From IMG/VR virus record IMGVR_UViG_3300030107_005380, positions 1 to 21,129 of that record: DNA of 21,129 bases; one strand, given 5' to 3'. This DNA is from a virus. The notes below the pieces were generated by a model that worked only from the letters and a program-made list of their open reading frames with translations, made no database searches and was not told where the DNA came from. Shown piece by piece: positions 2,793 to 19,005 of this stretch. Numbering within the stretch: the stretch's first letter is position 1; each line of letters starts with the position of its first letter. The position numbers were made by a program, and so were the translations under genes.

Positions 2793-4148
2793 TTATAGGT
2801 CTGTGAATGAATACAAAGCGTGAGTCTCTGGAATAGTAATTTCTAAACCAGCTTCCGTAACGATCATATCTTTACGTAAGTCTTCATCAGCTTGTTGTAC
2901 ATTCGTTATAATGTGAGTATCACGATTCAATCCGTTGCCCACGAGAGGACGATAAGCTACTTGATCTAAATCAATAAGTGCCATATATCCACTTGAAATA
3001 CCTCTAAATAATGGCTCTGCCACTAATGAAAGGTCTCCATGAATAGTGTTTATCTGCATTATTGAATGACCAAATGAGCCATTACGCTCTTTAGCACTCC
3101 AGTTATAACGCTGTTCTCCACCAAGCTCCATGTTGTTATCAACAAAGCCACCGATCTTGTTAAAGAAAGTTAAAACTGGACGACTTGCTAAGGCAAGTTT
3201 TCCCTTATTTCCACCACGTGCTGGATCGAATACTGTTTCAAAATCACTAAGAAGTGAATCATAAGTAACATTGCCAGATGCTTGGCTAAACATATATGCA
3301 TTACCTGATGTATATGAGGCACTACCACTTGCAACTGCCGTTGCAGATGATAATATATGTCCAACTATGCCTTCTGAGTATTGAACACTATTACTACGTG
3401 CTCTCATTCCAAAAAGCATTGCTCTTTCGATGTCAACTTTATGTTCTCTTAGTTTTAAATTCCAGATACGATTCCATTCGTTTGCATATCCTCTATAATT
3501 AGTAGCAATTGCAGTATTTGTCATTTCAGCTGCTGTTTTAAAGATTTGGGTATACCCATAATCATCGTCTAATTGACTAGACCAAACATCAGGAGAACCT
3601 GACCCTTCTGCAAAAGAAGTACCAATTATTTGGCAATTATCATTATCAGCGATATGATCATGATCAGTTTCATTAGTTGATCCTGTTTCTGCAATTGCTC
3701 TTGCAGTAACAGTAGTGTCAGCACTATTATGTGTAACACCTTCAACCCTAAAGTTAACCATAGAATCACCATCACTTGTTGAAACTGCGAATACCATTCC
3801 TTTTACAAGAAATTTAACTGCATTTGCAGAGCCTTCATCAACAATTAGTGTGTATGTAGAATCTACAGCTACATCACTTATTGCTGTTCCTTTGATTTGA
3901 AAGCTTCTACTTGTCCAATCAATCTTAGAACGATTTTCTAAGAAACGAAAAACTGGATCATTAGTAGGTACTTTTGCCACTTTATTAAGATATACAAAAA
4001 ATGGAGATTCATCTGGAGTAAGTTCGGCAACTCTGTCGCCAAAATTATGTATTCTACGTAAATCAGCTGATGCACCAACTGCTGCTGGTACAGTGTTACC
4101 AGTTTGATCTACATTATAAGAATACAATGTTCCTGTTTGATTAGCCAT
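2793..4148 (-). CDS. Major capsid protein (HK97-fold, predicted)
   Basis: A 451-residue protein at the expected place, immediately after portal and scaffold genes, with a strong AAAGGAG Shine-Dalgarno before ATG 4148. Residues about 28-70 carry ADLRRIHNFGDRVAELTPDE and SPFFVYLNKV, the type of N-terminal signature (LR.i..F.DRV.eLtP.esPF) I associate with the capsid proteins of marine tailed phages and the SU10/DUF5309-like group. The rest is Gly/Thr/Ala-rich mixed sequence with a long helix-forming stretch (NEWNRIWNLKLREHKVDIER) that would fit a spine helix. The C-terminal region contains IPETHALYSFTDL. Size and context make the assignment firm even though the exact family is not proven. Confidence 0.85.
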   Translation of the reverse strand: MANQTGTLYSYNVDQTGNTVPAAVGASADLRRIHNFGDRVAELTPDESPFFVYLNKVAKVPTNDPVFRFLENRSKIDWTSRSFQIKGTAISDVAVDSTYTLIVDEGSANAVKFLVKGMVFAVSTSDGDSMVNFRVEGVTHNSADTTVTARAIAETGSTNETDHDHIADNDNCQIIGTSFAEGSGSPDVWSSQLDDDYGYTQIFKTAAEMTNTAIATNYRGYANEWNRIWNLKLREHKVDIERAMLFGMRARSNSVQYSEGIVGHILSSATAVASGSASYTSGNAYMFSQASGNVTYDSLLSDFETVFDPARGGNKGKLALASRPVLTFFNKIGGFVDNNMELGGEQRYNWSAKERNGSFGHSIMQINTIHGDLSLVAEPLFRGISSGYMALIDLDQVAYRPLVGNGLNRDTHIITNVQQADEDLRKDMIVTEAGLEITIPETHALYSFTDL

Positions 4149-16749: not shown

Positions 16750-16758
16750 CAATAATAA

Positions 16759-16836
16759 GGGGTAAGTTACGCTGTCTTACTAACAGCAGTGGTTTCATTC
16801 ATTTACCACACGCCTTTCTGACTTGCCCCTTTTTTT
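16759..16836 (+). terminator. Multibranched hairpin with T-tract (terminator or attenuator)
   Basis: An outer nine-base stem GGGGTAAGT (16759-16767) pairs with ACTTGCCCC (16821-16829) with one G-U. It encloses two perfect five-base hairpins: GCTGT/ACAGC with a 7-base loop, and GTGGT/ACCAC with an 11-base loop. Seven T residues follow. The Shine-Dalgarno AAGGAG of the 457-residue gene starts directly after the T-tract. It can act as a terminator of the small-gene transcript, or as an attenuator controlling the next gene. The branched form is unusual for a simple terminator; it was tested as a tRNA and does not fit. Confidence 0.65.
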
Positions 16837-16848
16837 AAGGAGATTAAA

Positions 16849-18222
16849 ATGGTATCAAATAAAATGTGTCATTACGAAAGAACTATTGAGTTTGGAAAGT
16901 CGTACCCTGAAACTAACTATTGGAACATTGCATATAACATAGAGCCATTATTTGAAAAATTACAAAGAATGGCTAAGTCACGACTTGATATGGCAAAGCT
17001 CTATCTCAATAAGGAGAATGAAAAAATACTTCTTGAAAGTATGGCAGAAATTAATGCTGAATGGAAACAGAATATTCAAACTAGCATAAATAGGGACAGA
17101 GACAGTGATGCAGTCAATGTTGAAGAAAAATCCAAACTATTTTGGACTATGTTTAAGTTTTATACTAGCAATAAGAGAGTATTCAGATTGACAAATAATC
17201 TTGCTATGGCAATGGATGATACTAATGTGAATAATTTTATGGGATATGTAAACATTCCATATGATTCTATATATCTATCATTTCCACCAGAATATTTCAA
17301 ATACAGAAAGATGGCAAAATTAGATGACATGAGGATGCCCTGGACTACAAGTGAAGTTGATCAGTGGCTTAAAGAATCTAAATCTATTAATGAAAAAGAA
17401 GGAATTAACACTACATCCTCAGTACATCCCAAATTAATAGATTTAGAATTAGCTGGCATTAAAGAACCTGACGAAATAAAAAGAGTTTTCAATGGAAATC
17501 GACCAGAAGGAGTATACTTGGACATTGAAAATAATCAATTAAATATGCATGTAGTACTAAAGCCTCACAATTACAGGTATTCAATATTTCATGAAAGCAC
17601 ATATAAAATGAGTATTGAAATAAACAGTGATAAAAGCATTAAAAATATAATTAATAATACTATTGAAGATTTTGAGTTAAATTCTAAACCTTCTGTAGAA
17701 ATTATAGATGGTCATGATTTTATGTTAAACGCTATGTACAACATAGATAAAGAAAATAATTATACTGAATTTATAGATAGACAAAAAGCTAAAAAAGAAG
17801 AAATGAAATCTATTATAATATTGACATTAAAAACTTTAGCATATATAAATTCAGCAAATCAAGACGTTAATAGGGTCAATGCTCCAAGTAAAAAAATAAT
17901 AAATAAAAAGAAGTTTAAAAAGCACCCCTTCAGAATAAAATCAAGACTCCCATATTATAGTATAGGAGATGATATAAAAATTAATAATAAACCTACATTA
18001 GATGTTGAATCCACAGGAACAGGCAAATCATTAACAACAAGATTTATGGTAAGGGGTCATTATCATCATTTCTGGAAAATAAGAACTGAGGAGATAACTG
18101 ATAGTATGGTAGTAAAAACTAATGAGGATGGTAAGGTATTGATACGGAAATGGATTGCCCCATATTGGAAAGGGTCAGAATATGGAGACGTAGTATTAAA
18201 AAATTATAAAGTAACTGTATAA
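16849..18222 (+). CDS. AcrVA2-like protein (possible anti-Cas12a-type early protein)
   Basis: A 457-residue protein, the largest of the early region, with AAGGAG before the ATG. Landmarks in order: NKRVFRLTNNLAMAMDDT (residues 108-125), IYLSFPPEYF (141-150), GVYLDIENNQLNMHVVL (221-237), LKTLAYINSANQDV (327-340), VRGHYHHFWK (401-410), and RKWIAPYWKGSEYGD (433-447). The order R-x-Y/F-x-L-D, then cvYi/iYlsfP, then L-x-Y-i-x-x-x-x-D-v, then VRGH-HxxW and WI-P-W closely follows what I recall of AcrVA2 and its many phage relatives. AcrVA2 lowers Cas12a by acting on its mRNA during translation. A GTGKS near residue 390 is not a proper P-loop. Function in this phage is an inference. Confidence 0.6.
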   Translation: MVSNKMCHYERTIEFGKSYPETNYWNIAYNIEPLFEKLQRMAKSRLDMAKLYLNKENEKILLESMAEINAEWKQNIQTSINRDRDSDAVNVEEKSKLFWTMFKFYTSNKRVFRLTNNLAMAMDDTNVNNFMGYVNIPYDSIYLSFPPEYFKYRKMAKLDDMRMPWTTSEVDQWLKESKSINEKEGINTTSSVHPKLIDLELAGIKEPDEIKRVFNGNRPEGVYLDIENNQLNMHVVLKPHNYRYSIFHESTYKMSIEINSDKSIKNIINNTIEDFELNSKPSVEIIDGHDFMLNAMYNIDKENNYTEFIDRQKAKKEEMKSIIILTLKTLAYINSANQDVNRVNAPSKKIINKKKFKKHPFRIKSRLPYYSIGDDIKINNKPTLDVESTGTGKSLTTRFMVRGHYHHFWKIRTEEITDSMVVKTNEDGKVLIRKWIAPYWKGSEYGDVVLKNYKVTV

Positions 18223-18236
18223 AAAAGGAGACAATA

Positions 18237-18737
18237 ATGGAAAATAATATAGTATCTAGGAATAAATACTTTAAAAGTAGAAATAACAATAGGGTAACAG
18301 AACCAAAGGCAATAGAATATTTAACAAAAAGAAAAATCAGACATGTTAGATTTGGACTCGATGCTTTAGATTCTGATGCTCCAATATGGAAAATACCAGA
18401 GCCTTTAAGAGCAATACCTGATTATATTGTATTTAGCAAGTATGACCAGCCATACTTTTTTGAGGCTAAAGGTTTTGTAGGTAAGGTAAAACTAAAAACA
18501 AGAGATTTAAGAAATTACAAAACATGGAATGAATATCTTGAAATTATAATGTTTCTGTATAATATTCCTGATGATTCATATTTACAAATACAATTTAATC
18601 AAATTGTTAAAATAATAAAAGAACAAAAACCAGAAATCAAGTCATATCCTGAGAGTAAGAATAATACTTATTACGAACTACCAGTGAACTGGCTGCCAGA
18701 TTTCAAACAAATGGAGAGCTTGAATGAAGATAAATAA
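18237..18737 (+). CDS. PD-(D/E)XK superfamily nuclease
   Basis: A 166-residue protein with AAAAAGGAG before the ATG. The core reads TEPKAIEYL (E22/E27, residues 21-29), IPDYIVFSK with P61-D62, and YFFEAKGF with E76-A77-K78, followed by KTRDLRNYKTWNE. This is the E ... PD ... ExK arrangement of small PD-(D/E)XK enzymes such as Holliday junction resolvases and VRR-NUC-like endonucleases. It would cut branched or damaged phage DNA during recombination or late DNA processing. Position near the Cas4-like nuclease and annealing protein supports a recombination role. The exact subfamily cannot be told. Confidence 0.75.
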   Translation: MENNIVSRNKYFKSRNNNRVTEPKAIEYLTKRKIRHVRFGLDALDSDAPIWKIPEPLRAIPDYIVFSKYDQPYFFEAKGFVGKVKLKTRDLRNYKTWNEYLEIIMFLYNIPDDSYLQIQFNQIVKIIKEQKPEIKSYPESKNNTYYELPVNWLPDFKQMESLNEDK

Positions 18738-19005
18738 AGAAACTGCCAAGAAGTATATATATGATACTAATGGTAAAATATTCTCTGCTGTCTTTACAAA
18801 GAAAGATGGTGAGAAAAGAACAATGATATGCAGGCAAGGTGTGTCTAAATATGTCAAAGGAGTTGGTTTAAAGTTTAAACCAGAAGTACGTAATCTAATT
18901 GGTGTATTTGATATGAAAAAAGAAGCATACAGATTTATTAACATAAACACGCTTGAGCAAATAACTGTTCAAGGTAAAACATACACAATAAAGGAGATAA
19001 AATAA
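18724..19005 (+). CDS. WYL_2/Sm-like SH3-barrel small protein
   Basis: A 93-residue basic protein that overlaps the nuclease gene by 14 bases. The features GKIFSAVFTKKDGEKRTMIC, then RQGVSKYVKGVGLKFKPE and LIGVFDMKKEAYRFINI fit the WYL_2 (formerly DUF2693) SH3-barrel family seen in phages. These domains are thought to bind nucleic acids or nucleotides. The stop TAA overlaps the next ATG as TAATG. Confidence 0.7.
   Translation: MKINKETAKKYIYDTNGKIFSAVFTKKDGEKRTMICRQGVSKYVKGVGLKFKPEVRNLIGVFDMKKEAYRFININTLEQITVQGKTYTIKEIK

What the first reader, a model, noticed from the sequence alone, without database searches (positions are those of the whole stretch)
16849..18222. AcrVA2-like large early protein in a phage with many unknown early genes
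The order of motifs and the VRGHYHHFWK / RKWIAPYWKG C-terminus fit what I recall of the AcrVA2-like family. At 457 residues it is longer than the original AcrVA2 (about 320), with extra N-terminal and internal segments. A member this divergent in an AT-rich, probably marine phage could be a new counter-defence or translation-linked mRNA regulator not limited to Cas12a.
Basis: partly seen in the sequence, partly recalled or inferred. Interest (0 to 1): 0.6.

Follow-up and report, generated by a model that had tools for sequence, protein, structure and literature searches.

The report
Distant phage cousin of AcrVA2 and FinQ
An uncultivated phage carries a very distant relative of two proteins that silence rival genetic elements, the anti-CRISPR AcrVA2 and the plasmid fertility inhibitor FinQ, which turn out here to be relatives of each other; this suggests a broad family of mobile-element proteins that shut down chosen mRNAs, most of them not aimed at Cas12a.

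Summary
The ORF is real (ATG 16849, RBS AAGGAG, 457 aa). PHROG 6160, the AcrVA2 family, matches it weakly (E 0.0014). A profile of 126 AcrVA2-like proteins finds it at E 2.1e-6, with no hit among 19,746 reversed or shuffled ORFs. hhalign gives 96-97% probability, and the reciprocal search succeeds. It keeps the C-terminal R-x-H-x-H-x2-W ... W-x2-P signature. It is not AcrVA2 proper: with one IMG/VR relative it branches between the AcrVA2/FinQ clade and an 'MVRGH...PYxKG' clade. An AlphaFold2 model (pTM 0.58) matches AcrVA2 structure 7ci1 best, but Z is only 5.9 and AcrVA2 relatives were in its alignment; a model without them was too poor to judge.

Two results reach beyond this gene. FinQ, the IncI plasmid inhibitor of F-plasmid tra expression, is homologous to AcrVA2 (E 4e-18 to 7ci1); no paper in the held library names both. 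Of 46 genomes carrying AcrVA2/FinQ-family genes, one has Cas12a. My best reading is a phage silencer of specific mRNAs (of a defence system, competitor or host gene), with a variable recognition region and a constant C-terminal effector. Homology is shown; mechanism and target are inferred.

The parts
16849..18222 (+). AcrVA2/FinQ-superfamily protein, 457 aa
16837..16842 (+). Shine-Dalgarno-like AAGGAG, 6 nt before ATG 16849
   Evidence: read from sequence
16757..16836 (+). leader immediately upstream: predicted three-way-junction RNA (16757-16831) whose closing stem runs into a T7 tract (16830-16836); terminator- or attenuator-like
   Evidence: MFE -28.6 kcal/mol, z -4.6 against 200 shuffles; no Rfam match; single copy in window
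17173..17286 (+). middle-domain segment, residues 109-146 (KRVFRLTNN...YVNIPYDSIYLSFP), matching AcrVA2 W..T.GIY.hD....LP.WCVYh
   Evidence: hhalign; 40% identity to L006 here
17800..17865 (+). residues 318-339, helix EMKSIIILTLKTLAYINSANQD, matching AcrVA2 LLPYLLWLC...PEI
   Evidence: hhalign; model
18034..18198 (+). C-terminal domain, residues 396-450: short beta strands, best predicted part of the model
   Evidence: 10-residue block means 68 to 96 from residue 391 to 450
18046..18075 (+). signature 1, residues 400-409 MVRGHYHHFW, aligning with the AcrVA2/FinQ motif RPHxRR(A/G)HWHxyW
   Evidence: H404 in all 79 rows, R402 in 78
18145..18174 (+). signature 2, residues 433-442 RKWIAPYWKG, aligning with the AcrVA2/FinQ motif hKWLPPhxVN
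   Evidence: W435 in 76 of 79 rows
18724..19005 (+). WYL_2 (Sm-like) protein gene two genes downstream; a 48% identical homologue also lies about 0.8 kb from the relative on L006. Neighbour, not shown to belong
   Evidence: Pfam PF10902 E 5.6e-6

Best explanation
The gene encodes a divergent member of a superfamily that also holds AcrVA2 and FinQ. Shown here: homology to AcrVA2 and FinQ; a conserved R-x-H-x-H-x2-W ... W-x2-P C-terminal domain; a much less conserved N-terminal and middle region; position in the rightward gene block next to recombination genes. Inferred: like AcrVA2, it recognises a particular nascent polypeptide through its variable middle region, and its constant C-terminal domain, acting directly or by recruiting a host nuclease, causes loss of the mRNA being translated. 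Its target is more likely a host defence, host or competing-element transcript other than Cas12a.
For: PHROG 6160 matches this protein at E 0.0014 and holds AcrVA2 proper: Moraxella phage Mcat2 protein E 5e-107, Shewanella phage Y11 AcrVA2 E 1e-58, the latter matching PDB 7ci1 at 1.5e-72. Profile-profile 96.4% and 97.0%. 126-sequence HMM: E 2.1e-6 here, 2.4e-11 for the relative L006, no control hits. Reciprocal search with a profile of only this protein and L006 finds AcrVA2/FinQ-clade proteins at 1.6e-7, no control hits. FinQ hits 7ci1 at 4e-18. C-terminal motif information 3.3 bits per column against 0.4-2.5 in other blocks. Published: AcrVA2 lowers Cas12a mRNA by reading the nascent N-terminus (PMC13131331); FinQ stops F tra transcripts at multiple sites, Rho-independently (PMC8744291). 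Cas12a in 1 of 46 genomes carrying the family.
Against: Identity to known members is under about 20% overall. The protein lacks residues near-invariant in the AcrVA2/FinQ clade (H of RPHxRR is F399; G after the W is I411). I found no member outside the Cas12a-inhibiting AcrVA2 with a tested nascent-peptide mechanism. FinQ was described as a transcription terminator, not a co-translational silencer. The AlphaFold2 match to 7ci1 (Z 5.9) used an alignment containing AcrVA2 relatives; without them the model was too poor (pTM 0.34) and 7ci1 was not listed.
Confidence: 0.5

Rival explanations
1. It is a true anti-Cas12a protein: it silences cas12a in the phage's host, as AcrVA2 does in Moraxella.
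For: Homology to AcrVA2. One family-bearing genome, Moraxella lacunata, does encode Cas12a.
Against: It lies outside the AcrVA2/FinQ clade. 45 of 46 genomes with the family have no Cas12a match. The host is unknown, so the target cannot be looked for.
Confidence: 0.1
2. It regulates the phage's own or host gene expression (for example the early-to-late switch) by the same fold, with no role in conflict.
For: Sits among early and recombination genes. The leader has a terminator-like structure suggesting controlled expression.
Against: The two relatives with known action (AcrVA2, FinQ) both act on rival systems. Patchy presence on unrelated phages and plasmids fits an accessory role.
Confidence: 0.25
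3. It is FinQ-like in the classic sense: it blocks transcript elongation or terminates transcription at several sites in a target operon, without reading a nascent peptide.
For: FinQ homology to AcrVA2 and the FinQ phenotype as reviewed in PMC8744291.
Against: AcrVA2 is translation-dependent (PMC13131331), and the shared C-terminal domain argues for a shared mechanism. The FinQ work (1989) predates the AcrVA2 mechanism, and shortened transcripts could also arise by cleavage (inference).
Confidence: 0.1
4. The motif resemblance is convergence or chance and the protein belongs to an unrelated phage family.
For: Low overall identity; no Pfam or NCBIfam family matches; Foldseek alone found no PDB match below E 0.001.
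Against: Reciprocal profile hits with clean controls over separate regions in the same order.
Confidence: 0.05

Closest known systems
AcrVA2 (Moraxella; PDB 7ci1, 7ci2; PHROG 6160)
   Same: Order of conserved segments from the middle domain to the C-terminus; R-x-H-x-H-x2-W followed by W-x2-P; profile match both ways.
   Different: 457 against 323 aa; internal and loop insertions; 'MVRGH...PYWKG' instead of 'RPHIRRGHWH...WxPAxFVN'; outside the AcrVA2/FinQ clade; no evidence of Cas12a targeting.
FinQ (IncI plasmids, fertility inhibition of F)
   Same: Member of the AcrVA2 clade (E 4e-18 to 7ci1) with the RPHIRRGHWHTYW motif; so a homologue at superfamily level.
   Different: Plasmid gene acting on F tra transcripts; about 350 aa; not compared with this protein pairwise, only through profiles.
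MVRGH...PYxKG proteins (PHROG 15934 of Propionibacterium phages; IncC plasmid protein WP_089069035; many IMG/VR contigs)
   Same: Identical MVRGH and P[YF]xKG signatures; profile match E 3.4e-8; IncC protein 25% identical over 144 aa.
   Different: 'GHWRxQ..GP' usually replaces 'GHYHHFW'; N-terminal part not alignable in most; no known function.
IMGVR_UViG_3300010151_007259 protein (L006:7439-8593)
   Same: Closest relative: 44% identity over the last 135 aa and 40% over 50 aa of the middle domain; WYL_2 gene nearby in both.
   Different: 385 aa, lacks most of the internal insertion; no other rightward gene of the window has a match on that contig.

Membership tests
AcrVA2 family (PHROG 6160) | Significant profile match to AcrVA2 relatives | tested here: met
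   PHROG 6160 E 0.0014; 126-row HMM E 2.1e-6 with 0 control hits; hhalign 96-97%; reciprocal 1.6e-7
AcrVA2 family (PHROG 6160) | C-terminal motif RPHxRR(A/G)HWHxyWxG ... hKWLPPhxVN | tested here: inconclusive
   R402, H404, H406, W409, W435, P438 kept; H at 399, R at 401, G at 411 and VN not kept
AcrVA2 family (PHROG 6160) | Falls inside the clade that holds AcrVA2 and FinQ | tested here: not met
   Branches outside the 63-row AcrVA2/FinQ clade (97), with L006 (99); quick tree, long branches
AcrVA2 family (PHROG 6160) | AcrVA2 fold (helical NTD, alpha/beta middle domain, small beta CTD) | tested here: inconclusive
   7ci1 top of 202 chains, Z 5.9, 221 residues, but the model used AcrVA2 relatives; independent model too poor
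AcrVA2 family (PHROG 6160) | Lowers Cas12a mRNA through the nascent N-terminal peptide | not testable with these tools
   needs experiment; host unknown
FinQ | Sequence homology to FinQ | tested here: met
   Indirect: FinQ is a row of alignment A3, which matches at 96-97%; FinQ itself matches AcrVA2 7ci1 at 4e-18
FinQ | Inhibits F-plasmid transfer gene expression | not testable with these tools
   needs experiment

The most novel reading that the evidence does not exclude
AcrVA2, FinQ and the MVRGH proteins, including this one, form one widespread superfamily of mobile-element silencers that read a chosen nascent peptide with a variable middle domain and destroy its mRNA through a constant R-x-H-x-H...W C-terminal domain; FinQ's 'premature termination' of F tra transcripts would then be co-translational mRNA destruction.
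Probability: 0.35. Interest if true: 0.85.

Novelty: new variant of a known kind. Interest (0 to 1): 0.6.

Why it matters
AcrVA2 is described as the first prokaryotic-defence example of destroying an mRNA by reading the protein being made from it (PMC13131331), and how the mRNA is destroyed is unknown. A superfamily with an invariant C-terminal motif points to where that activity may lie. The FinQ link gives a second, genetically easy system (F plasmid in laboratory E. coli) in which to test it, and offers a new reading of an old fertility-inhibition phenotype. The rarity of Cas12a in genomes carrying the family means many targets remain to be found.

Tried and rejected
tblastn of the protein against phages found nothing and a viral-contig scan with it found no relative; a genome-contig scan with the two-member alignment found none. 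Pfam, NCBIfam and PADLOC gave no credible match, and two AcrVA2-clade proteins likewise have no Pfam match. Pfam accession PF26125, recalled from memory as AcrVA2-like, is not in the library. phmmer of the protein against PDB gave nothing credible. Foldseek against PDB had no match below 0.001. A model made without AcrVA2 relatives was too poor to use, and its second look did not list 7ci1. A structured leader like the one upstream was not found before the L006 gene (z -1.3). Phage relatives: terminase 27% to Campylobacter and Helicobacter phage proteins, portal 23-24% to P22-like and Agrobacterium phage portals, too distant to name a host.

Full report
Observation. The ORF at 16849-18222 is intact, starts at ATG behind AAGGAG, and encodes 457 aa with the quoted motifs. 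The window is a 21,129-base IMG/VR virus record. Leftward genes encode terminase, portal, major head protein and endolysin; rightward genes include WYL_2, a ParB-like protein, a PD-(D/E)XK exonuclease and a Sak annealing protein. Strand and skew switch near 10.5-11.3 kb.

Family. Direct searches were blank, but PHROG 6160 matched at E 0.0014. That PHROG is AcrVA2: a Moraxella phage Mcat2 protein scores 5e-107 and the AcrVA2 of Shewanella phage Y11 (PMC10846135) 1e-58, and the latter matches PDB 7ci1 at 1.5e-72. The C-terminal motif also led to a second group, 'MVRGH...P[YF]xKG', in Propionibacterium phages, IncC plasmids and more than 20 IMG/VR contigs; those were found by the motif, so its invariance there is by construction. 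One IMG/VR protein, L006, is a closer relative (44% over 135 aa).

I gathered AcrVA2 relatives from phages, plasmids, IMG/VR and genomes. A profile built without this protein scores it at E 2.1e-6 and L006 at 2.4e-11; no reversed or shuffled ORF scores at E<=10. A profile of this protein plus L006 finds AcrVA2/FinQ-clade proteins at 1.6e-7, and a profile of the MVRGH group finds this protein at 3.4e-8 and the AcrVA2 clade at 1.6e-6, again without control hits. hhalign gives 96.4% and 97.0%, the second over 219 columns from the middle domain to the end. A quick tree puts this protein with L006 (99) between the MVRGH group (96) and the AcrVA2/FinQ clade (97); long branches and unusual composition make the placement tentative.

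Structure. The AlphaFold2 model has mean pLDDT 62.5 and pTM 0.58, with a confident C-terminal beta domain. Among 202 chains realigned, 7ci1 ranks first (Z 5.9, 221 residues) and 7ci2 third; unrelated rows reach 5.5, Foldseek alone was not significant, and AcrVA2 relatives were in the alignment, so this is supportive only. Without them the model fails.

FinQ. The tblastn of Y11 AcrVA2 against plasmids returned 607 records, many annotated finQ. FinQ matches 7ci1 at E 4.2e-18 over two segments. PMC8744291 says FinQ stops F tra transcription at multiple sites independently of Rho; PMC13131331 says AcrVA2 destroys Cas12a mRNA after reading its nascent N-terminus. No paper in the held library contains both names; preprints are not held, so prior mention cannot be excluded.

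Targets. Of 46 genomes from which family loci came, one (Moraxella lacunata) has a Cas12a match. Many are incomplete assemblies, and Cas12a is rare in general, so this shows that Cas12a is not the usual partner, not what the partner is. A conference report says AcrVA2 can be pointed at tagged Cas9 and Cas12f (PMC12908700). Earlier surveys already noted unnamed AcrVA2-like folds (PMC12230656) and AcrVA2-like proteins in huge phages (PMC7162821).

Mechanism. In the AcrVA2/FinQ clade, information is concentrated in the C-terminal motif (3.3 bits per column; other blocks 0.4-2.5). With H404 in all 79 rows and R402 in 78, I infer a constant effector domain and a variable recognition region. Whether the C-terminal domain cuts RNA, binds the ribosome or recruits a nuclease is not known. 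The leader immediately upstream folds into a three-way junction ending in T7 (z -4.6), possibly an attenuator or the terminator of the preceding genes.

Verdict.

Noticed in passing
window 16757-16836 (+): Predicted three-way-junction RNA (13-bp closing stem, two inner hairpins) ending in T7 directly before the ribosome-binding site of the AcrVA2-like gene; z -4.6, no Rfam match. Not seen before the L006 gene.
   Followed up: partly
window 18237-18737 (+): The next gene downstream (166 aa) has an IPDYIVF...YFFEAKG stretch that by eye resembles a PD-(D/E)XK nuclease core; no family matched it.
   Followed up: no
window 18724-19005; L006 6350-6601: A WYL_2 (Sm-like) gene lies within about 1 kb of the AcrVA2-like gene in both phages, 48% identical.
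   Followed up: partly
L003 2662-5340 (Citrobacter plasmid pZY-2) and the same in L005: A ribbon-helix-helix protein, a RelE/ParE-type toxin, an MVRGH-group protein and a site-specific integrase are adjacent on IncC plasmids.
   Followed up: no
L090 2812-3759 (+) and 4895-5878 (-); L139/L141; L162/L163: Some phages and genomes carry two different AcrVA2/FinQ-family genes, which would fit one silencer per target.
   Followed up: no
L047 2962-4056 (E. coli plasmid pDJH_Plas3): finQ is annotated from 3277 (260 codons), but homology to AcrVA2 starts at 3001 and the open frame reaches 2962, so the annotated start is probably too late.
   Followed up: no
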